DNA from: a virus | Length of the DNA: 62,597 bases | Strand: one strand, 5' to 3' | Virus record (IMG/VR): IMGVR_UViG_3300044636_000600 | Coordinates: 1-62,597 of that record | Shown: positions 32,231-52,681 of the stretch, one piece after another | Position numbering within the stretch: the stretch's first letter is position 1 | Layout: each line of letters begins with the position of its first letter | The notes under the pieces: model-generated | What the model was told of the DNA's origin: nothing | The model's database searches: none | Seen by the model: the letters and a program-made list of their open reading frames with translations, nothing else | Made by a program: the position numbers and the translations under genes

Positions 32231-32274
32231 ACGAACACAGCGCCAACCGGGGTAATGGTTGGCGCTGTGTTCGT
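32231..32274. terminator. Bidirectional terminator between late genes and CRISPR locus
   Basis: A perfect 18-bp stem, ACGAACACAGCGCCAACC with GGTTGGCGCTGTGTTCGT, and an 8-nt loop. It lies between convergent units: the late operon ending at 32229 and the leftward ParB gene ending at 32286. T-rich tails are weak on both sides. Confidence 0.8.
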
Positions 32275-32285
32275 GTGGTACTCCC

Positions 32286-33419
32286 CTATCGTTCCTGGCG
32301 CGAGATTTCCAGGGATGACCAAGCCAGTACGCTGGATGAGATTTCGGTATTTTTCCCAGTGGCACGCTCAAGCGACGCCACCTTGATACGCAACTCGCTG
32401 TTCTCTCGGTAGAGCCTGGCGTTGTCGGCCAGCACTTTTTCGATAGCGTCGGCATGATCGTCAATAATGCCTTGCGCATAGGAGCGCACTCTTTCCAAGT
32501 GTGTCGCCAGCATAGCGGCTGATTCTGGCACCTGGGGGAAAAGAGCGGCTACGCGTGCCACTTCCTCCCCGGCGCGGTTGATGGCATCGCGCACAGTGGC
32601 GAAGTGACGGCGGTGCAATTGCTCTTGTCCGATGGGCGTAGCGGCTTTTTGCTCCTCTCTTGCCCGATCTCGCTTCTTGCGTTCAACCTTCTGTGCTTTT
32701 TCCTTTTTGGCAAATTCCAGCAGCGTGTCGGGCATCCCAGCATCAACCCACTTTTTTACGTAGGTTGGCTTTGCCGGTGTTCGGCGCGCTTCATCCTGCA
32801 ATCGATTGCGCTCCGGTAGTGTTAGCGCATATTCACCCGCCAGTTGGTCAAGCTCCGGTCTGGGTGGCACGACATTCCAGAAGGACAGGATGCGGTCAGC
32901 CAGCGATTCAACAGGGATATTCCACACAACTGACTTGGCGGCAAACCAGTCGTATAGTTCCGCCTGTTCGCCAACCAGCTGGCTGCGGTCTAACTTGGCA
33001 TAGAGGCTTTGCGACTGGCGGTAATTTTCCCCACGAAACATTTGCCACAAATGGGCGGCAATTTCCTCTTTCGCGTTTGTGCGGTGTCCCCAATCGGTTT
33101 CCCAACTCTTTTCCATCCATTCATAAAGACGGCTATTCTCAATGCTGTGATGTGGTTTGGCGGCCATGATCCGTAGATCCCAGAAGCGGCTCTCCGCAAG
33201 GTCAACCAGGACAATACGGATTTTGCCAAGCCCTGCCCGATGCGCGGCCACTACGCGATGTAGACCGTCGATAATTTTGCGATTGTGCAGGCAGACATAA
33301 GGCGGGAAAACAATTTGACCTTTGTGCGCCGGGAGAGAATTGATAATCTCCTGGACGTGCGCTTCATTGACCGTCCAATCAACGAGAAGTTCACCGGGAT
33401 CAACTTCGACAATCGTCAT
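32286..33419 (-). CDS. ParB/Srx-domain protein downstream of the Cas12-like gene
   Basis: ATG 33419 with GGGAAAG upstream gives 377 residues, starting 28 bp after the Cas12-like stop. A longer reading from 33527 would overlap that gene. Residues 1-75 are a ParB N-terminal-type domain: IVEVDPGELLVDW, HVQEIINSLPAHKGQI, then IIDGLHRVVAAHRAG, matching the G-x-H-R nucleotide-binding box. The middle is unrecognised. The C-terminal 100 residues form a long coiled coil (ADNARLYRENSELRIKVASL). It shares the transcript of the CRISPR locus. ParB proteins bind DNA and CTP or act as nucleases; its link to the guide system is inferred from synteny only. Confidence 0.75.
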   Translation of the reverse strand: MTIVEVDPGELLVDWTVNEAHVQEIINSLPAHKGQIVFPPYVCLHNRKIIDGLHRVVAAHRAGLGKIRIVLVDLAESRFWDLRIMAAKPHHSIENSRLYEWMEKSWETDWGHRTNAKEEIAAHLWQMFRGENYRQSQSLYAKLDRSQLVGEQAELYDWFAAKSVVWNIPVESLADRILSFWNVVPPRPELDQLAGEYALTLPERNRLQDEARRTPAKPTYVKKWVDAGMPDTLLEFAKKEKAQKVERKKRDRAREEQKAATPIGQEQLHRRHFATVRDAINRAGEEVARVAALFPQVPESAAMLATHLERVRSYAQGIIDDHADAIEKVLADNARLYRENSELRIKVASLERATGKNTEISSSVLAWSSLEISRQER

Positions 33420-33447
33420 GCTTTCCCGTTCGTTGGCAGTAAAAACA

Positions 33448-34962
33448 TTATCTAAAACTTTGGTGGAATCCACGGTAGCCTCCCTTAGTTCCCCATTCGC
33501 TCTTGCGATACATAACCCGCCGCGCAATATTGACGGCTTTCGTAATTCCTAGCGGAACAGACGCCCCACATTGCGCACAAACAGCATTGCTTTCTTGGCG
33601 CGAGCAGTCGCCGCCACACCGGATGCAAATGCCCATCGCTTTCGCCGGAAACACACCGGTGCGGTACGGAATGCCCATCATCTTACATTTGTAGGCAATG
33701 ATGAACTCCGCTTTTGTCCATAGGCGTTTCAGCTTCTTCTCATTGCGCTTGCTGTAAATGCCGTTGGTATCCATCATTGCAATGCCAGCGCCGTGCGTCT
33801 TTGCCGTTTGCAGCATTTGGTTGATCAGCAGGTGCAAAAGTTCATCCTGCGCTGATGTGCGATAATCTAGGTAGGAGACCGCCTTGCCCTGCTGCTGCTT
33901 GCGACGGATCTGCTTCTGCGCGTCCATCTTCAAATCGAGAATACCTGTTTCGCTCTGGTGCGTTTGCATCAACTCACCTGTTTTGCCTACAATGGCATAG
34001 GTTAAGTTGTAAAGCACGTTGTCGGTAATCCCCATGTACCCCTTTGGCTCATAGGGCGCGGGCGCTGGGAAAGCTACCGACACATTGATGTAATAATGAC
34101 CACGGCGCTTGATAACTTTGGCCGATTTGGGAACGCCATTGCCGTCAAGCATGGCGAGTAGAAACTTACGAAACTGCCAGTGGAATTGACCGCCACGCTT
34201 GCCAAGTTCCAACGGCAGCAGCAGCCCGTTGCGCTTCTTGCCCGCCTGGATCGGGGTGACGCCATCCGGGTCATTGCTCCACAGGGTCAGCATGTTCTTT
34301 TGCCCAAAGTCGGTAATGCCGGTGCGCTTGTCATCGTTGGGCAGCAGGGGCAAATAAATATAGGGATGCTTGAGGTCGGAGGTAATCAGTAAGTCAAAGT
34401 CACGGCCACGCGTGTAGGTCAATGGACGCTCCTTGACGAAGGCTTTGCGACGCATATCGGCGGCTAGGTCACTTTCCCGGCGACGGTCAAGCAGCAGCGC
34501 CACCTCGTCTGCAACCTCCGCAATATCAGCGCCGGAACGCAGCGCGCCAGCACGCCCTACTGTATCCAACGTGCCAAATGCGGACAAGGCGCGGGCGCGG
34601 GGTTCGTCGGTGACAACGGTTTCCGCCGTCGGCCAGTTATTGAGCAAGTCAGTGCTTTCCAGTTCCAAGTAGCTGGCAATCATGCCGCACACGTCCGAGA
34701 AGATGCCGTCTTTTAGTGATGAGGATAGCGGGACGCGCCACTCCGTACCAGTGGGCAAGCAGGGCCGGATGCTATCGGCGTTGTACACGCCTTTACTCGT
34801 GCGCCCGTTAGTACGAATGTTGTCCAGGTGTTCATGCGCCCAATCGAGCAAGCGCTGCACCTGGCTTGTGTATTCCTGCATGGCGAAATCGAGTAATTCT
34901 TGCTTACGCCGTGTCGGGGTTCGCAGGCGAAACGACACGGTGATGAATGCTTGTTTTTGCAT
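33448..34962 (-). CDS. Compact Cas12/TnpB-family effector, probably nuclease-dead
   Basis: ATG 34962 follows TAGGTG; GTG 34968 would add two residues. The 504-residue protein starts with a Cas12/TnpB-type strand and helix (ITVSFRLRTPTRRKQELLDF). The wedge-like segment VIKRRGHYYINVSVAF precedes RuvC. RuvC-I reads YMGITDNVLYNLTYAIV, with Thr at the usual Asp or Asp one residue late (D314). RuvC-II reads GIAMMDTNGI, with Met397 at the Glu position. The zinc ribbon CIRC...CAQC (C446, C449, C462, C465) is intact. After it, CGASVPLGITKAVNI aligns without gaps to the canonical CG-x4-AD-x-NAA-x-NI, so RuvC-III Asp is Gly472. It lies beside a CRISPR array and tracrRNA candidate without TnpA, Cas1 or Cas2. 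Expected role: guide-directed DNA binding without cutting. Subtype undetermined. Confidence 0.88.
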   Translation of the reverse strand: MQKQAFITVSFRLRTPTRRKQELLDFAMQEYTSQVQRLLDWAHEHLDNIRTNGRTSKGVYNADSIRPCLPTGTEWRVPLSSSLKDGIFSDVCGMIASYLELESTDLLNNWPTAETVVTDEPRARALSAFGTLDTVGRAGALRSGADIAEVADEVALLLDRRRESDLAADMRRKAFVKERPLTYTRGRDFDLLITSDLKHPYIYLPLLPNDDKRTGITDFGQKNMLTLWSNDPDGVTPIQAGKKRNGLLLPLELGKRGGQFHWQFRKFLLAMLDGNGVPKSAKVIKRRGHYYINVSVAFPAPAPYEPKGYMGITDNVLYNLTYAIVGKTGELMQTHQSETGILDLKMDAQKQIRRKQQQGKAVSYLDYRTSAQDELLHLLINQMLQTAKTHGAGIAMMDTNGIYSKRNEKKLKRLWTKAEFIIAYKCKMMGIPYRTGVFPAKAMGICIRCGGDCSRQESNAVCAQCGASVPLGITKAVNIARRVMYRKSEWGTKGGYRGFHQSFR

Positions 34963-34976
34963 AGACACACCTATAT

Positions 34977-35821
34977 ATCACACTTACCTAAATCCTACTT
35001 CGCGTACTGCAACTCTGAACCATCCGCGCCACTGCTGACCATACCGTGATGTCACACTTATCTAAATCCTACTTTGCGTATTGCAACTCCACAAACAAGG
35101 AAGAATCAACCAGGTCAAGGTAACGTCACACTTATCTAAATCCTACTTTGCGTATTGCAACCTGCTGGCTGGCGCAAGCAACGACACGTCAAGGCGCAGT
35201 CACACTTACCTAAATCCTGTTTCGCTTACTGCAACAACAACAACTTTTGGATCGACGTGTCGCTATTCAAGGTCACACTTACCTAAATCCTGTTTCGCTT
35301 ACTGCAACACCGAATTGCGCAAGGTGTCGCCAAAGGAATGGCATGTCACACTTATCTAAATCCTACTTCGCTTACTGCAACCCGGCACCGTGGGGAAAAG
35401 CTGGGTGGCGTAAGTGGTCACACTTATCTAAATCCTACTTCGCTTACTGCAACCGTTCGGTGGCAAAGCTGGCCTGGTGATGGCAACGGGTCACACTTAT
35501 CTAAATCCTACTTCGCTTACTGCAACTGGCTAAGAATATGCGGATGCCAAAAAATCGACTGATGTCACACTTATCTAAATCCTACTTCGCTTACTGCAAC
35601 GGCGCTACCTGGACGAAATCGACATTAACCAACTATGTCACACTTATCTAAATCCTACTTCGCTTACTGCAACTGAAGCGCCAGAAGCTCTTTGCATCGC
35701 TCACGGTAGCGTCACACTTATCTAAATCCTGTTTCGCGTACTGCAACGAATTGCTGATAGTACGCCAACTGGTCAGGCTGTAGCGTCACACTTATCTAAA
35801 TCCTGTTTCGCGTACTGCAAC
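34977..35821 (-). CRISPR. CRISPR array: 12 repeats of 37 nt, 11 spacers of 35-37 nt
   Basis: Repeats start at 34977, 35051, 35125, 35199, 35272, 35345, 35417, 35490, 35564, 35637, 35711 and 35785. Read on the minus strand, the inferred direction, each begins GTTGCAGTA and ends AAGTGTGAC, with AGGATTTAG in the middle. Direction is supported by the promoter and anti-repeat at the right and by the most divergent repeat (34977) at the left, distal end. Variants fall in adjacent blocks (1; 2-3; 4-5; 6-10; 11-12). Spacers are all different and look like protein-coding DNA. I saw no full-length match in the window by eye. Confidence 0.98.
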
Positions 35822-35984
35822 CGCACATTCGCAAGACGAAATTTTCGACCCGCATGTATCCGGCACGCCCAATCTCGCAATCTGGGCGGTTCTGTGCGGT
35901 CAATTCTCGTTACCATTGACAGATTCTCCGCTCATCATCATCGCCGGTTCTCAACTCACTTTTTGCACAAAAACGGGGGTGGTT

Positions 35985-36158
35985 TGCGAAAAGGTCAGGG
36001 AGTAGGTTTCCCTACTCCCCCAAAACAGGATTTAGCCGCTACACAGTAGCTATTGCCCCCGACCTTTCGGCTCCCTGCGTATCGTCCGCCGCAAATGCAA
36101 GCACCAGGGCAGATCGTCCGCGCAAGGCACGGGGCGCGCAGTGTGTGACTACTACGCG
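35985..36158 (-). ncRNA. Candidate tracrRNA / CRISPR leader RNA
   Basis: Downstream of the promoter at 36193-36165 the minus-strand transcript would contain hairpin GCTAC-TGT-GTAGC (36050-36038). Two nt later comes the anti-repeat CTAAATCCTGTTT (36035-36023). Three nt later is a perfect 9-bp hairpin GGGAGTAGG-GAAA-CCTACTCCC (36019-35998) closed by a GNRA tetraloop; the GAAA loop exists only on this strand. The anti-repeat pairs 13/13 with one repeat class (AAACAGGATTTAG). With the other class (AAGTAGGATTTAG) it also pairs 13/13 if two G-U wobbles are allowed. Ends are estimated. Confidence 0.65.
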
Positions 36159-36164
36159 AGAAAT

Positions 36165-36193
36165 ATCATATCATGAAATATAAACGTTGTCAA
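36165..36193 (-). promoter_or_regulatory. Consensus sigma70 promoter of the CRISPR-Cas12 locus
   Basis: On the minus strand TTGACA (36193-36188), exactly 17 bp, then TATGAT (36170-36165); transcription would start near 36158. The -35 box is part of TTGACAACGT, shared with two other leftward promoters of this window (46337 and 61928). Confidence 0.75.
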
Positions 36194-36231
36194 GAATCCC
36201 TATATGGGGAATTCATACCGATTTTAGATAT

Positions 36232-36441
36232 TTAGTACCCCCTCTTCACTCTCATCACTCTTTTCGTCCGCCGCTCCGTGTGCCCGTGATGCCACTGGCC
36301 GCAGTGTGGGCAACGATACGCCCTGGTGCGTTCACCCGTGTGTCTGCGCAACGACAGTGACGCGCTGACCGCTTCCGCCTGCGTCGGGTGGCTACGTTTC
36401 CACTCGCAGGCTTTCTTTCGTTGGTGGCGTTTGCTCGCCAT
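36232..36441 (-). CDS. Small basic zinc-ribbon protein
   Basis: ATG 36441 follows a perfect AAAGGAG. The 69-residue product is very basic and has CPHCGQWHHGH, a C-x2-C plus two His that can bind one zinc ion. It is the last gene of the long leftward early operon and overlaps the gene before it by 50 bp. Likely a nucleic-acid-binding accessory protein; exact role unknown. Confidence 0.65.
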   Translation of the reverse strand: MASKRHQRKKACEWKRSHPTQAEAVSASLSLRRHTGERTRAYRCPHCGQWHHGHTERRTKRVMRVKRGY

Positions 36442-36619
36442 GCCCATCTCCTTTCGCATCCTCCCACCTCCCCGCAATCGACACAACCCAGCGTTGCCCG
36501 TCCCACCGCATGGCAACGGCTCCCCGCAATTTGGCAGCTTCCCACAAGTTGATGAGGGCGACGGCGGCGGCAACATCGTGGACGTGGCCTAGTTCGTTGG
36601 GGTCGGTTATACCTTGCAT
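36392..36619 (-). CDS. Hypothetical protein downstream of the sliding clamp
   Basis: 75 residues; the start lies immediately after the clamp stop (TAG then ATG) with AAGG upstream. The sequence (HVHDVAAAVALINLWEAAKL, then MRWDGQRWVVSIAGRWED) suggests a helix followed by a small beta hairpin. No family recognised. Tight spacing with the clamp gene suggests co-expression. Confidence 0.6.
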   Translation of the reverse strand: MQGITDPNELGHVHDVAAAVALINLWEAAKLRGAVAMRWDGQRWVVSIAGRWEDAKGDGHGEQTPPTKESLRVET

Positions 36620-37813
36620 CTATGCACCTTGCTTCGGGGGGTGCATCGGCATCAACAATTGATACCCATCGACACCATCACCCGCCATGATCATTACCGG
36701 TCTGGTCGGCTGCGTCGTTTGCAGGATAACCTTCGGTGTGTCGATGTGCGATAGCGCATCAATCAGAAATTTGGCATCAAGCGCCATTTCGATGGAGTCG
36801 CCTTCGATTGCGCACGGCAATTCGCTGGCGTTGTTGCCCATTTCCGCGCTGGCGGCGAACAGCCTCACCTTGCCTTGCCCGTGAATGCTGCCATCCGGTA
36901 TTACCTGACAGCGAATAATGTTGGCGTTATCGCGCGCAAACAGCAACGCCACCTTTGCTGCTTTGAGTAGGTCAGCCGTGGAAATAACGGTTGTAGTGTT
37001 GGCCGACTTTGGCACCTTAGCGCGATAGTTAGGGAATCGGGCGTCGATCAATTCGCTAACAACATCTACCCGCTGCCACTCACCGCCCCCAGTGGCACTG
37101 AATAGAATTTGATTGCGCTTTTCGCTGACAACCACATTGATCATGCCGACGCTGCCATCAGCAATGCGGGCCACTTCAGCAAGACTGCGTGCGGGAATGA
37201 CAACGGCGTTTTTCTCCGTCTCCATAGTGGCCTCACACGATCTCACGCTGAGGCGATAACCGTCCGTTGCGGCCATTGTCAATTTTCCATTGTCAAAGGT
37301 GGTTTCAATGCCGGTTAGCGTGGGCCGATTTTCATCCGCTGAGGCGGCAAACGCAACAGACTCAATGGTCTCCGTCATTTGCTTTGCATCCACCGCGTAA
37401 GCGTCGCCCGTCACCGTGGGCGAATCGGGGAGTGCTGATTCCGGTTGGTAGGTGGGCAACAGCGGAAATTCGACGGCGTCAATCCCCTTGATGTTGGCCT
37501 CAAAGCGGGCACAACTGAGGTGAAGCATCTGGGTGCGCACAGCCAGTTCCATGCCAATGCGCTCTGGCGGTAGGCTGTTGACGTATTCCGCCAACAATCG
37601 TGCCGGGATGGTGGTAGCGCCGTCCTCATGCACTTCAGCGGCAATCCAGCAGTTGATGCCGATTTCCCGGTTGGTTGCCGATAGCCGCAACCGGTCGCCG
37701 GTGGCGTCCAGAAGAATGTTGCTCAGTACCGGCATGGTGGTACGGCCCGACACGGCGCGCCCGACAATGGATAGAGCGGCGGATAGGTTCTTTTGTGATA
37801 CGGTTAGTTTCAT
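36620..37813 (-). CDS. dnaN: DNA polymerase III sliding clamp (beta subunit)
   Basis: 397 residues with the full three-domain beta clamp layout. Domain 1 starts MKLTVSQKNLSAALSIVGRA with TTMPVLSNILLDA. Domain 2 includes TGIETTFDNGKLTMAATDGY and RLSVR, the family's TDG(H/Y)RL signature. Domain 3 starts near TVISTADLLKAAKVALLFAR and ends YQLLMPM. The ring tethers polymerase to DNA. No polymerase gene is visible in the window, so the clamp may recruit the host enzyme or an unseen phage polymerase. Confidence 0.93.
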   Translation of the reverse strand: MKLTVSQKNLSAALSIVGRAVSGRTTMPVLSNILLDATGDRLRLSATNREIGINCWIAAEVHEDGATTIPARLLAEYVNSLPPERIGMELAVRTQMLHLSCARFEANIKGIDAVEFPLLPTYQPESALPDSPTVTGDAYAVDAKQMTETIESVAFAASADENRPTLTGIETTFDNGKLTMAATDGYRLSVRSCEATMETEKNAVVIPARSLAEVARIADGSVGMINVVVSEKRNQILFSATGGGEWQRVDVVSELIDARFPNYRAKVPKSANTTTVISTADLLKAAKVALLFARDNANIIRCQVIPDGSIHGQGKVRLFAASAEMGNNASELPCAIEGDSIEMALDAKFLIDALSHIDTPKVILQTTQPTRPVMIMAGDGVDGYQLLMPMHPPKQGA

Positions 37814-47006: not shown

Positions 47007-47921
47007 ATGAGCGAAGCAGTAAATAGCGGGAAGTTGTTTGCCCGCATTGCGCAGGTAATGGGCAAGGTGCGCAGCCTGCCCAAAGACGGCTACAATAAGC
47101 AGAACGGCTACAACTATGTCAGCAATGATACAGCGCTAGAGGCCATCGGCAAGCACATGGCCGAATTCGGCGTCGTTGTCATTCCGTCAATGGTGCATTA
47201 CGACACCGTTACTGATGGCAAAATGACACGCGCCAAAGCGGAGTTTGATATGCACGTCTGCGGCGCTGACGGCGATGTGTTCACCGCCCGTTGGACGGCT
47301 GAGGGTATCGACTACGGCAACCCCGACAAGGCACTGACGAAGGCGATCACCTACGCCACCAAGACGTTTCTGATCAAGCTATTTGTCGTTGGCGCTGGCG
47401 GTGAAGATCCCGACGCCGAAAGCGCACCCGACGACAAAGCGGCGCAACGCAATGCAACCCCACAGCGCCCCCAACCGACACCAACACCAAAGCCCGCACC
47501 AGCCGCCACCAACGGCGCGCAGCACCGCCAGCCGCCTGCGCAGGCGCCCAAGCCCGTTGACGCCGATGCCGCAGCCCTGGCCGCCAGCGTCAATGCCACG
47601 ATCACCAACGTTAGCGAGTTTGACGCCATCCCCGACGCCAAGGCGAGTGATGCGCTAGACAAGGCGCGCAAGGCTTTTCACGCCACCATTGCTGACACGT
47701 TCCCGAAAGGCGACACCGACAGCGCCCGTCACTGGTTTATCGAAAAATACACCACGGCTTACACGGCTGGCAATGTGCGCACGTCCACCATCGACCTAAC
47801 CGCTGCTGAACTGGACGCCATGACAGAAGCGCTCAAGAAGCGCGCCAAGCACTACCGTGATCAGTGGGTGGTGGTGAAAACCGCGCCGATTACGAATGGC
47901 AAACAGCCGGCAACGGCATAA
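47007..47921 (+). CDS. erf: ERF-family single-strand annealing recombinase
   Basis: 304 residues. The N-terminal 140 match ERF: MSEAVNSGKLFARIAQVMGK, NYVSNDTALEAIGKHMAEFG, ALTKAITYATKTFLIKLFVV (the conserved Ala-Lys-Thr helix). A Pro/Ala-rich linker and a helical C-terminus follow. ERF anneals complementary DNA for phage recombination and circularisation. The SSB gene 13 bp downstream is its usual partner. Confidence 0.88.
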   Translation: MSEAVNSGKLFARIAQVMGKVRSLPKDGYNKQNGYNYVSNDTALEAIGKHMAEFGVVVIPSMVHYDTVTDGKMTRAKAEFDMHVCGADGDVFTARWTAEGIDYGNPDKALTKAITYATKTFLIKLFVVGAGGEDPDAESAPDDKAAQRNATPQRPQPTPTPKPAPAATNGAQHRQPPAQAPKPVDADAAALAASVNATITNVSEFDAIPDAKASDALDKARKAFHATIADTFPKGDTDSARHWFIEKYTTAYTAGNVRTSTIDLTAAELDAMTEALKKRAKHYRDQWVVVKTAPITNGKQPATA

Positions 47922-50977: not shown

Positions 50978-52681
50978 GTGAGTGAATTGCAACAAGTATC
51001 AGTAGACAAGCTACGACCGCACCCGCAAAACCCGCGCTTGGTACAGCGTGAGGATGTGATCGCCAGCATCGAAACACAGTTACGCGAAAAGGGAAGTTTT
51101 GACCCAGCCCATGCGTTGTTGGTTCGTCCGGTTGCCGATGGCTATCAGATTGTCATGGGCCACCATCGCCACGCCGCAGCCAAACGTGCAGGGCTGACCA
51201 CCGTGCCTTGCTGGGTGCGCACTATCAGCGACAGCGAAGCCTTTATGTTGCTTGCCACCAGCAACGAGCAGAGTGACATGACCCCGCTTGAATGGGGTAT
51301 GCACGCGCTGAACTATCAAGGCAAACTGAAAGAGTACGCTGCCATCGTGGGGAAGGCAGAGAGCAGCATGTACGAAAACCGCAAAGCGGCGGAAGTGTTG
51401 CGGCATTTTAATGAAAAAACTCGAACGTTCGAGATCTCTGCCGAAGGCAAAACTCGAACGTTCGAGTTTTTGGATAAGACGAGTCATTTGTATGCAATCA
51501 GCAAATCAGATCAGTCTATTTGGATGTTGCTTTGCAACTGGATGCTAAATGGCAATAAGGGTCAGCGCGAAGTTGTTGACATCGTTGATGAGGTCAAGCA
51601 ACTAAAGTCTGACCACGCCTTTTTGCAACCCTACGAAAAGGTTGTTAGCCGCTACCTGGAAAACCGCAGCATTGACGGGAAGTCGGTCAAGATGCTGGGC
51701 GATCTAGTGGATAGCACGGTCAAGGCTATCCACCAACGCAGAGACGATCACCCCGAAAGCACCATCGATTTCGATGGCTATATTGATGAGTTCTACCACT
51801 GGCTAATTGACAACAGCGGCGGCGATTCGTGGAACGTTGCCAAGGTTCGCACCCATCGTTCGGAGCTTATCAGAAAGCTTGACACCGAACTGTCTTTGGT
51901 CGGTCGAGTTGCGCTTTACGTTGCCGTTGCTGAATCGTTGCCGCTGCAAGACGAGTCGGTCAATGTCGTTATCACGTCACCGCCCTACAACCTGGGCGCC
52001 AAGAATTGGGACATGGGTGGGGGTGGGCGTGAAAAGCGCGACGGGATTGGCTATGACTCTACCGAGGATTCTATGGACTACGATCAGTACATTGAATGGC
52101 AGATCGCAGTTTTTAAGGAACTGTACCGGGTGGCCCGCCCTGGCGCGTCATTCTTCTACAACCACAAAGCGCGCACGCTTGACGGTCACTGCATTGATCC
52201 GGTGTCATGGGTGATTCGTTCTGATAACCCCTGGACGTATCGCCAGCGGCTAACCTGGGATCGCACGTCAACCCACAATCACGAACCACGCCTTTTCGAC
52301 CAAGTTGACGAAACAATCATTTGGATGACAAAGGGCAAGCCGGCACTTTCCGAGCGCGGTATCGTTGGTGTCAAGTCGGTTTGGTCAGAGTTTGGCCCTA
52401 TCCCGAACACTTGGCACCCCGCCCCATTCACTATCGAACTGCCAAGAATGTTGCTACGTGCCATTGGCGCCGACGTTTTATCTGGGCAAGACAAAGACTT
52501 CACTGTGCTTGACCCATTTGCGGGCAGTTGCACCACCATCGAAGCAGCGCTTGAATTTGGCTGCAAAGGGATCGGTATTGATAAGTCAGAAAGCTATCTG
52601 CGTAAGGCGATTGACGCCCGCCTGGGTAGCGGTTGGTCTTTTGAATTATTGCATGGAGAAAACACTGAAGATGCGGAATGA
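50978..52681 (+). CDS. ParB-domain and DNA methyltransferase fusion
   Basis: 567 residues; GTG start with GAGGTG. Residues 1-110 are a ParB domain (VDKLRPHPQNPRLVQREDVI, IVMGHHRHAAAKRAG). A helical middle follows. Residues about 320-560 form a permuted methyltransferase: the catalytic VVITSPPYNLG comes first and motif I (VLDPFAGSCTTIEAALEFGC) last, the beta-class order of N4/N6 enzymes. The phage probably protects its DNA or marks replication sites. Two copies of a 14-bp palindrome lie within the coding region. Confidence 0.85.
   Translation: MSELQQVSVDKLRPHPQNPRLVQREDVIASIETQLREKGSFDPAHALLVRPVADGYQIVMGHHRHAAAKRAGLTTVPCWVRTISDSEAFMLLATSNEQSDMTPLEWGMHALNYQGKLKEYAAIVGKAESSMYENRKAAEVLRHFNEKTRTFEISAEGKTRTFEFLDKTSHLYAISKSDQSIWMLLCNWMLNGNKGQREVVDIVDEVKQLKSDHAFLQPYEKVVSRYLENRSIDGKSVKMLGDLVDSTVKAIHQRRDDHPESTIDFDGYIDEFYHWLIDNSGGDSWNVAKVRTHRSELIRKLDTELSLVGRVALYVAVAESLPLQDESVNVVITSPPYNLGAKNWDMGGGGREKRDGIGYDSTEDSMDYDQYIEWQIAVFKELYRVARPGASFFYNHKARTLDGHCIDPVSWVIRSDNPWTYRQRLTWDRTSTHNHEPRLFDQVDETIIWMTKGKPALSERGIVGVKSVWSEFGPIPNTWHPAPFTIELPRMLLRAIGADVLSGQDKDFTVLDPFAGSCTTIEAALEFGCKGIGIDKSESYLRKAIDARLGSGWSFELLHGENTEDAE
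51420..51470 (+). repeat. Twin palindromes inside the ParB-methyltransferase gene
   Basis: CTCGAACGTTCGAG occurs at 51420-51433 and 51453-51466, and the second copy is part of a perfect 22-bp palindrome (51449-51470). Copies are 33 bp apart. In the protein they encode the duplicated KTRTFE segments. A DNA-binding site is suspected. Confidence 0.6.

What the first reader, a model, noticed from the sequence alone, without database searches (positions are those of the whole stretch)
32286..36193. Self-contained phage CRISPR locus: promoter, tracr-like RNA, 12-repeat array, dead Cas12-like effector, ParB partner
All parts are on one strand in one putative transcript with no cas1, cas2 or transposase. 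The effector has lost RuvC catalytic positions. A phage carrying a complete, non-cleaving guide system suggests RNA-guided silencing, for example of competing phages, plasmids or host defence genes. The parts are seen in the sequence; the biological role is inferred.
Basis: partly seen in the sequence, partly recalled or inferred. Interest (0 to 1): 0.97.

Follow-up and report, generated by a model that had tools for sequence, protein, structure and literature searches.

The report
Phage CRISPR silencer with dead Cas12f-like effector
A virus, probably of Chloroflexota bacteria, carries its own compact guide-RNA system whose Cas12f-like protein has lost its DNA-cutting residues but looks kept by selection, so it probably switches target genes off by binding rather than cutting; what it targets is not known.

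Summary
The locus is real and beyond chance. On the minus strand, in order: a near-consensus promoter (36193-36165), a tracrRNA-like stretch with a 15-bp anti-repeat (36021-36035), 12 repeats of 37 nt with 11 spacers (35821-34977), a 504-506 aa Cas12f/TnpB-like protein, and an ORF with weak ParB resemblance. All three RuvC catalytic residues are replaced (T, M, G); a 35-36% identical Chloroflexota protein keeps D, E, D. A related phage contig carries the same locus: 0 of 181 nt differ in the tracr stretch and effector dN/dS is 0.08, yet no spacer is shared (11 versus 3). That is what a working, non-cleaving guide system with changing guides would show. Cas1, Cas2 and TnpA were not found. The host is probably a Caldilineaceae-like Chloroflexota. 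Distant relatives with arrays and intact RuvC sit in Salinibacter phages and in two plasmids. No spacer target was found, so silencing of rival phages is inference; the ParB label is weak and joint function untested. Dead type V effectors and phage-borne compact type V loci are known; a dead Cas12f-like effector with tracrRNA and a long array in a phage is a new variant of a known kind.

The parts
36165..36193 (-). sigma-70-like promoter TTGACA-17-TATGAT with extended -10
   Evidence: 11 of 12; over 36166-36231, 1 of 66 nt differs in the G001 phage
35985..36165 (-). tracrRNA-like non-coding stretch (ends approximate)
   Evidence: 5 of 200 shuffles fold as well, z -2.39; 0 of 181 nt differ from G001
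36021..36035 (-). anti-repeat, 15 bp with repeat positions 12-26
   Evidence: variable repeat positions 13, 16 and 17 keep pairing
35822..35984 (-). leader tail; the 24 nt next to the first repeat are identical in G001
   Evidence: 11 of 163 nt differ overall
34977..35821 (-). CRISPR array: 12 repeats of 37 nt, 11 spacers of 35-37 nt; last repeat ends 8 nt before the effector GTG
33448..34968 (-). nuclease-dead Cas12f/TnpB-like effector (GTG start 34968, or ATG at 34962)
32286..33419 (-). ParB-like ORF, 377 aa from ATG 33419 (the upstream TTG extension has a stop in G001)
   Evidence: NCBIfam parB_part E 0.0078; dN 0.017, dS 0.177; stop in extension
32231..32274 (-). 18-bp hairpin, terminator-like end of the operon
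   Evidence: 4 terminator-like sites in the scan against 5.4 in shuffles; this one has by far the longest stem

Best explanation
A phage-borne, tracrRNA-dependent type V (Cas12f-like) CRISPR silencer. The promoter drives tracrRNA and array, and possibly the two genes. The tracr pairs with repeats, host RNase III or another nuclease trims the guides, and the dead effector binds PAM-flanked DNA complementary to a spacer and blocks transcription or replication there without cutting. Spacers change between close phage relatives, presumably by integration with Cas1-Cas2 supplied by the host, or by recombination; the likeliest targets are competing phages or plasmids in the same host. Shown by sequence: all parts, the three residue losses, selection on effector and tracr, spacer difference. 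Inferred: transcription, guide processing, DNA binding, silencing, targets, source of spacers.
For: 12-repeat array; anti-repeat that holds for every repeat type in the array; tracr stretch 0 of 181 nt changed between two phages whose adjacent leader tail differs at 11 of 163 nt and whose effector dS is 0.088; effector 8 of 505 aa changed, dN 0.0069; RuvC D/E/D to T/M/G while the four zinc-ribbon cysteines stay; Chloroflexota sister L095 with intact D/E/D; spacers 11 versus 3, none shared; best solved relatives Cas12f by profile (9nzq, E 1.5e-28) and by Foldseek (E 9e-14); N-terminal part on AsCas12f 7wju_B, 180 residues, rmsd 2.8, Z 14.6. Dead Cas12m and Cas12c are reported to interfere by binding (PMC11013384, passages; PMC12669027, passages and section 9).
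Against: No protospacer found. Selection rests on one pair of phages (37 of 1521 nt of the effector differ). The effector model is of low confidence (mean pLDDT 56.6) and its whole-length overlay on Cas12f is loose (TM 0.36, rmsd 12.8). The single sequence has no true match in the PDB and only sub-cut-off family hits. No adaptation genes in the record, which may be a fragment. No RNA data.
Confidence: 0.7

Rival explanations
1. RNA-guided regulator of the host or of the phage itself, like TldR: the dead effector silences chosen host genes (for example receptor or defence genes) during infection or lysogeny, not other mobile elements.
For: Dead TnpB-like regulators in prophages are known (PMC13418256, passages). 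No phage or plasmid target was found.
Against: 11 and 3 fully different spacers in phages 86-96% alike over the matched half suit changing targets better than a fixed regulon; no hit beyond chance in 46 genomes of one Chloroflexota family or 396 of its class, though the true host is not known and few candidates per genome were scored.
Confidence: 0.17
2. Anti-CRISPR decoy: tracr, repeats and dead effector sequester host crRNAs or Cas1-Cas2, and the spacers are passengers.
For: A phage Cas9 with dead RuvC and its own tracrRNA is proposed to do this (PMC11656645, passages).
Against: An 11-spacer array is not needed for a decoy, and no array with this repeat was met in 46 and 396 genomes.
Confidence: 0.06
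3. Decaying former CRISPR nuclease locus without function.
For: All three catalytic residues lost; the last repeat ends in T instead of C.
Against: dN/dS 0.08, open frames in both phages, tracr stretch unchanged, different spacers.
Confidence: 0.04
4. The effector still cuts, with a rearranged active site.
For: A D stands one residue after the lost D of RuvC-I, and one after the lost E of RuvC-II.
Against: The RuvC-III acid is replaced by G with no acid beside it, and the D after RuvC-II is the ordinary non-catalytic D of the ED pair, present in the relatives too; L095 keeps D/E/D at the aligned places.
Confidence: 0.03

Closest known systems
Type V-F (Cas12f, including V-U3)
   Same: Small effector, putative tracrRNA in the locus (PMC7229846, passages), closest solved structures by profile and Foldseek
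   Different: RuvC triad lost; NCBIfam Cas12f2 score 30.7 against a cut-off of 450; in the second structural look Cas12f and CasX tie at Z 15.1
Type V-M (Cas12m)
   Same: Compact effector, binding instead of cutting, carried by plasmids and some prophages (PMC11656645 and PMC11013384, passages)
   Different: V-M has no tracrRNA and triads D-E-D, H-D-D or N-D-D (PMC11013384, passages); here there is an anti-repeat and T-M-G
TldR (TnpB-like nuclease-dead repressors)
   Same: Phage-borne TnpB-like protein with dead RuvC (PMC13418256, passages)
   Different: TldR sits in a TldR-gRNA cassette; here a 12-repeat array with tracrRNA
Natural dCas12f (PDB 9n9c, 9n9m)
   Same: dCas12f-gRNA complexes by title, Foldseek E 6.8e-9 and 4.1e-8
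   Different: Said to work with a sigma factor (recalled, paper not read); no sigma-factor match for the second ORF here
Type V-U2 locus of cyanophage vB_AphaS-CL131
   Same: Phage-borne compact TnpB-like effector next to an array with 10 spacers and no other cas genes (PMC6293099, passages)
   Different: No tracrRNA was found there; RuvC loss is not described in the passages read; its sequence was not compared here
Virally encoded compact type V effectors of landfills
   Same: Small type V-like proteins beside viral arrays, several without recognisable RuvC motifs (PMC12607003, passages)
   Different: Selection and tracrRNA are not described for them in the passages read; sequences were not compared here

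Membership tests
Type V-F / Cas12f | profile score above the curated cut-off | tested here: not met
   Cas12f2 NF049972 30.7 bits, cut-off 450; Pfam Cas12f1-like_TNB 16 bits, cut-off 26.3; PADLOC Cas12f best E 4.1e-7
Type V-F / Cas12f | intact RuvC D-E-D and dsDNA cleavage | tested here: not met
   T-M-G in both phages; cleavage not assayed
Type V-F / Cas12f | tracrRNA with anti-repeat | tested here: met
   as sequence; no RNA data
Type V-F / Cas12f | Cas12f fold | tested here: inconclusive
   first Foldseek rows are Cas12f, but model pLDDT is 56.6 and Cas12f ties with CasX
Type V-M / Cas12m | no tracrRNA, single crRNA | tested here: not met
   anti-repeat present; feature from PMC11013384
Type V-M / Cas12m | D-E-D, H-D-D or N-D-D at the RuvC site | tested here: not met
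   T-M-G; feature from PMC11013384
Type V-K | Tn7-like transposition genes beside the effector | not tested
   no profile search for TnsB, TnsC or TniQ was made
Type V-U2 | effector of the V-U2 group | tested here: inconclusive
   no Cas12u2 row for the window protein among 9 PADLOC rows at E up to 0.01; CL131 sequence not compared
IS605 TnpB | Y1 transposase TnpA partner | tested here: not met
   PF01797 absent, 8 of 14 controls ring; stand-alone TnpBs exist
IS605 TnpB | profile score above the curated cut-off | tested here: not met
   NF040570 43.1 bits, cut-off 100
TldR | dead RuvC | tested here: met
TldR | guide RNA next to the gene instead of a CRISPR array | tested here: not met
   12-repeat array
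Autonomous adaptive CRISPR system | own Cas1 and Cas2 | tested here: not met
   record may be a fragment
ParB/RepB partition proteins | ParB_N domain | tested here: inconclusive
   weak NCBIfam hit, none in Pfam, structure model unusable at pLDDT 40.9

The most novel reading that the evidence does not exclude
RNA-guided loading of a ParB-like protein: the dead effector finds the spacer-matched site and seeds the co-encoded ParB-like protein there, which spreads or bridges DNA to silence a larger stretch or to partition the phage. This would be an RNA-guided ParB, a kind of system not known to me.
Probability: 0.07. Interest if true: 0.95.

Novelty: new variant of a known kind. Interest (0 to 1): 0.66.

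Why it matters
It adds an apparently independent case in which a phage kept a CRISPR guide system but gave up cutting, with a small tracr-dependent effector and an array that differs between close relatives. It gives a clean pair for testing: a dead phage protein and a 35-36% identical sister with an intact triad. Relatives in phages of Salinibacter ruber M8 (182 records) may make the wider family open to bench work.

Tried and rejected
Spacer targets. Window array (11 spacers with repeats) against 50,697 phage records: 2 weak hits, both records of one Erwinia phage, E about 3. Against 72,556 plasmid records: 8 weak hits, best E about 3. Against 7 named Chloroflexota genomes: none. Against 46 genomes of the family of G002 (which holds the Caldilineaceae MAG of L024): 2 hits, E 0.003 (15 nt of spacer W6 and 15 of a repeat) and E 0.007 (27 nt of spacer W5 and 6 of a repeat, 88% identity), both E-values per genome, so expected by chance over 46. 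Against 396 genomes of the class: 1 hit, E 1.3e-4 per genome, 13 nt of spacer W9 and 19 of a repeat, with no direct repeats near it: taken as chance. At most 11 and 2 candidates per genome were scored, so these two searches are shallow. All 14 spacers against the window and the related contig: only short words, the best 16 of 17 nt of a G001 spacer at window 47568-47584, E 0.03. Only 1 of 11 window spacers (W1) was sought in IMG/VR, in one reading frame with synonymous changes allowed: no match. The 3 G001 spacers were not searched in the phage or plasmid collections.

Relatives. No relative in genome contigs with the single protein. Repeat core in IMG/VR: only the G001 contig. IMG/VR with the window and L095 aligned: only that contig. 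400 genomes of the phylum with L095: none at E 1e-20, but the search was not shown to ring anywhere. 46 genomes of the order: none at E 1e-12. No array on the 8.8-kb contig of L095. Salinibacter phage, Salinibacter plasmid and P. spongiae flanks gave no anti-repeat above shuffles (86, 27, and 123 and 51 of 200), so tracrRNA is not claimed for the whole family.

Tree (15 rows). Of the six TnpB rows, L089, L091 and L013 read D/E/D, L090 reads D/E/H, and L092 and L094 have gaps at RuvC-II, RuvC-III and the zinc ribbon and sit on long branches. L093 (stops inside) and L022 (partial match) were left out. The tree does not settle whether the array-linked relatives form one family.

The dN/dS comparison with structural genes planned did not run. 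The ParB-like model (pLDDT 40.9) was not searched. Rfam at gathering thresholds found only a tRNA. My first notebook entry reads the lost RuvC-II residue as D; the later alignments with relatives show E replaced by M, with the D after it.
Full report
What is there. Read on the minus strand, the locus runs from a promoter with 11 of 12 consensus bases and an extended -10 at 36193-36165, through a non-coding stretch with an anti-repeat at 36021-36035, into 12 repeats of 37 nt separated by 11 spacers of 35-37 nt, and 8 nt later into an effector gene, 33448-34968. A second ORF follows after 28 nt (ATG 33419 to 32286), then an 18-bp hairpin at 32274-32231. Cas1, Cas2 and the Y1 transposase profile gave no match in the record, while 9, 7 and 8 of 14 control genomes rang. 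The record is a virus contig and may be incomplete.

The effector is a Cas12f/TnpB-like protein without a working RuvC triad. NCBIfam's TnpB and Cas12f2 models match its C-terminal half (E 3.4e-11 and 1.3e-7, both below cut-off). The single sequence has no true match in the PDB, but a profile of seven sequences, the window included, finds Cas12f first (9nzq, E 1.5e-28; CasX and TnpB follow from about 6e-22 and 9e-21). The AlphaFold2 model is poor (mean pLDDT 56.6). Foldseek ranks Cas12f complexes first (E 9e-14, but TM only 0.36). In the second look Cas12f and CasX tie at Z 15.1; the best-defined match is the N-terminal 8-301 on AsCas12f, 180 residues at 2.8 angstrom, Z 14.6; TnpB and Cas12m rows lie near 11. 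At the aligned catalytic places the window and L001 read T, M and G; L095, J2-1, L006, the P. spongiae plasmid, two Salinibacter phage sequences and the Salinibacter plasmid (7 of 7) read D, E and D. The four zinc-ribbon cysteines are kept.

Evidence that it works. IMG/VR contig 3300042543_000295 (L001, called G001, 37.5 kb) is a related phage, 86-96% identical to the window over matched stretches of its structural half; the window's replication half has no counterpart on that contig. The locus lies beyond the tail genes in both; on the other side the G001 contig ends about 0.6 kb past the zinc-finger-like stretch, so only one flank can be compared. The effectors differ at 8 of 505 residues; dN is 0.0069 and dS 0.088. 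The tracr stretch differs at 0 of 181 nt, the promoter stretch at 1 of 66, the leader tail at 11 of 163 and the upstream zinc-finger-like stretch 36232-36456 at 27 of 225. At the leader tail's rate, no change in 181 nt would have a chance of about 3 in a million (my arithmetic). The array, in contrast, has 3 spacers there and none of the window's 11. Of the seven variable repeat positions, three (13, 16, 17) lie in the anti-repeat segment, and each of the three segment types still pairs over 15 nt. All this rests on a single pair of phages.

Where it comes from. The phage sliding clamp at 36620-37813 finds 63 relatives among 115 candidates in named genomes, the closest at 55%; 8 of the 63 are titled Caldilineaceae, at 50-55%. 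The host is therefore probably a Chloroflexota of that group (inference). Among 396 genomes of the class, one carries a full-length relative (G207, L095, 36% identity, E 2.6e-70; 35% in the alignment) with an intact triad and no array on its 8.8-kb contig; three other genomes matched at E 1e-8 or better over the RuvC part only. More distant relatives on mobile elements have arrays: a P. spongiae plasmid (8 repeats) and S. ruber plasmid pSR16 (5 repeats), Salinibacter phages (effector relative in 182 records; the array of L018 in 182 records; residues checked in L018 and L021 only), and a viral contig with two repeats and an anti-repeat above 200 of 200 shuffles (L006). Phage J2-1 has a relative, but no array was seen in the 5.8 kb searched. 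In the tree, window and L001 group with L095 (support 1.0). Deeper order is open: the split of all array-linked relatives plus window and L095 from the sampled TnpBs has support 0.29, and a split joining window and L095 to the TnpBs has 0.86 in the unrooted tree. The simplest reading of the residues is loss of the triad on the branch to the two phages.

How it probably works. The tracr pairs with the repeats, the guides are trimmed, and the dead effector binds matching DNA and blocks transcription or replication. Such binding-based interference is reported for Cas12m and Cas12c (PMC11013384, passages; PMC12669027, passages and section 9). Different spacers in close relatives suggest changing targets, hence rival phages or plasmids, but no target was found in any search made, and several of those searches were shallow. 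Without Cas1-Cas2 in the record, new spacers would have to come through host enzymes or recombination; the 24 invariant nt at the leader-repeat junction fit integration there. This is inference.

The ParB-like ORF. It is kept (dN 0.017, dS 0.177) and sits directly downstream in both phages, but ParB similarity is weak and the model is unusable. In four relatives with annotated neighbours (L003, L008, L009, L018) no neighbour bears a ParB name; L008 has ParA genes, as plasmids do, and many neighbours are hypothetical.

Compared with what is known. It works like V-M and other dead Cas12 silencers, but V-M has no tracrRNA (PMC11013384, passages). It resembles Cas12f in size, tracr and probable fold, but fails the profile cut-off and the triad. 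It resembles TldR in being a dead phage TnpB-like protein, but has an array. Phage-borne compact type V loci are in print: cyanophage CL131 (PMC6293099, passages) and landfill viruses, some without RuvC motifs (PMC12607003, passages). The 2025 classification speaks of about 50 independent associations of TnpB with arrays or adaptation modules, and of repeated RuvC loss (PMC12669027, section 9). In the listings of eight full-text searches of the held library and the passages read I saw no description of this locus or of this combination; most subscription papers are not held, and the TnpB/Cas12 survey PMC10691335 was not available. I therefore call it a new variant of a known kind.

Noticed in passing
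L018:3842-6314, L021:4001-6397: Salinibacter phages carry a compact type V-like effector, listed as hypothetical protein, beside a CRISPR array (182 GenBank records). RuvC is intact in the two sequences checked, L018 and L021; L021, with a 97% identical effector, has a different array.
   Followed up: partly
L006:2574-2803: A short viral contig related to phage J2-1 has a two-repeat mini-array and a significant anti-repeat downstream of a TnpB-like gene with intact RuvC.
   Followed up: partly
L009:2253-4227: P. spongiae plasmid: TnpB-family gene preceded by 8 repeats with a 60-nt period, a 28/32 layout that looks like type I-F arrays (recalled).
   Followed up: no
window 50978-52681: A fusion of a ParB N-terminal domain and a DNA methylase (Pfam ParB_N E 4.6e-14, N6_N4_Mtase E 1.9e-27).
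   Followed up: no
window 36232-36456: Small zinc-finger-like ORF just upstream of the promoter (by eye), also present in the related phage.
   Followed up: no
L095:6063-6220: A small Arc-like ORF directly upstream of the Chloroflexota sister effector, by eye.
   Followed up: no
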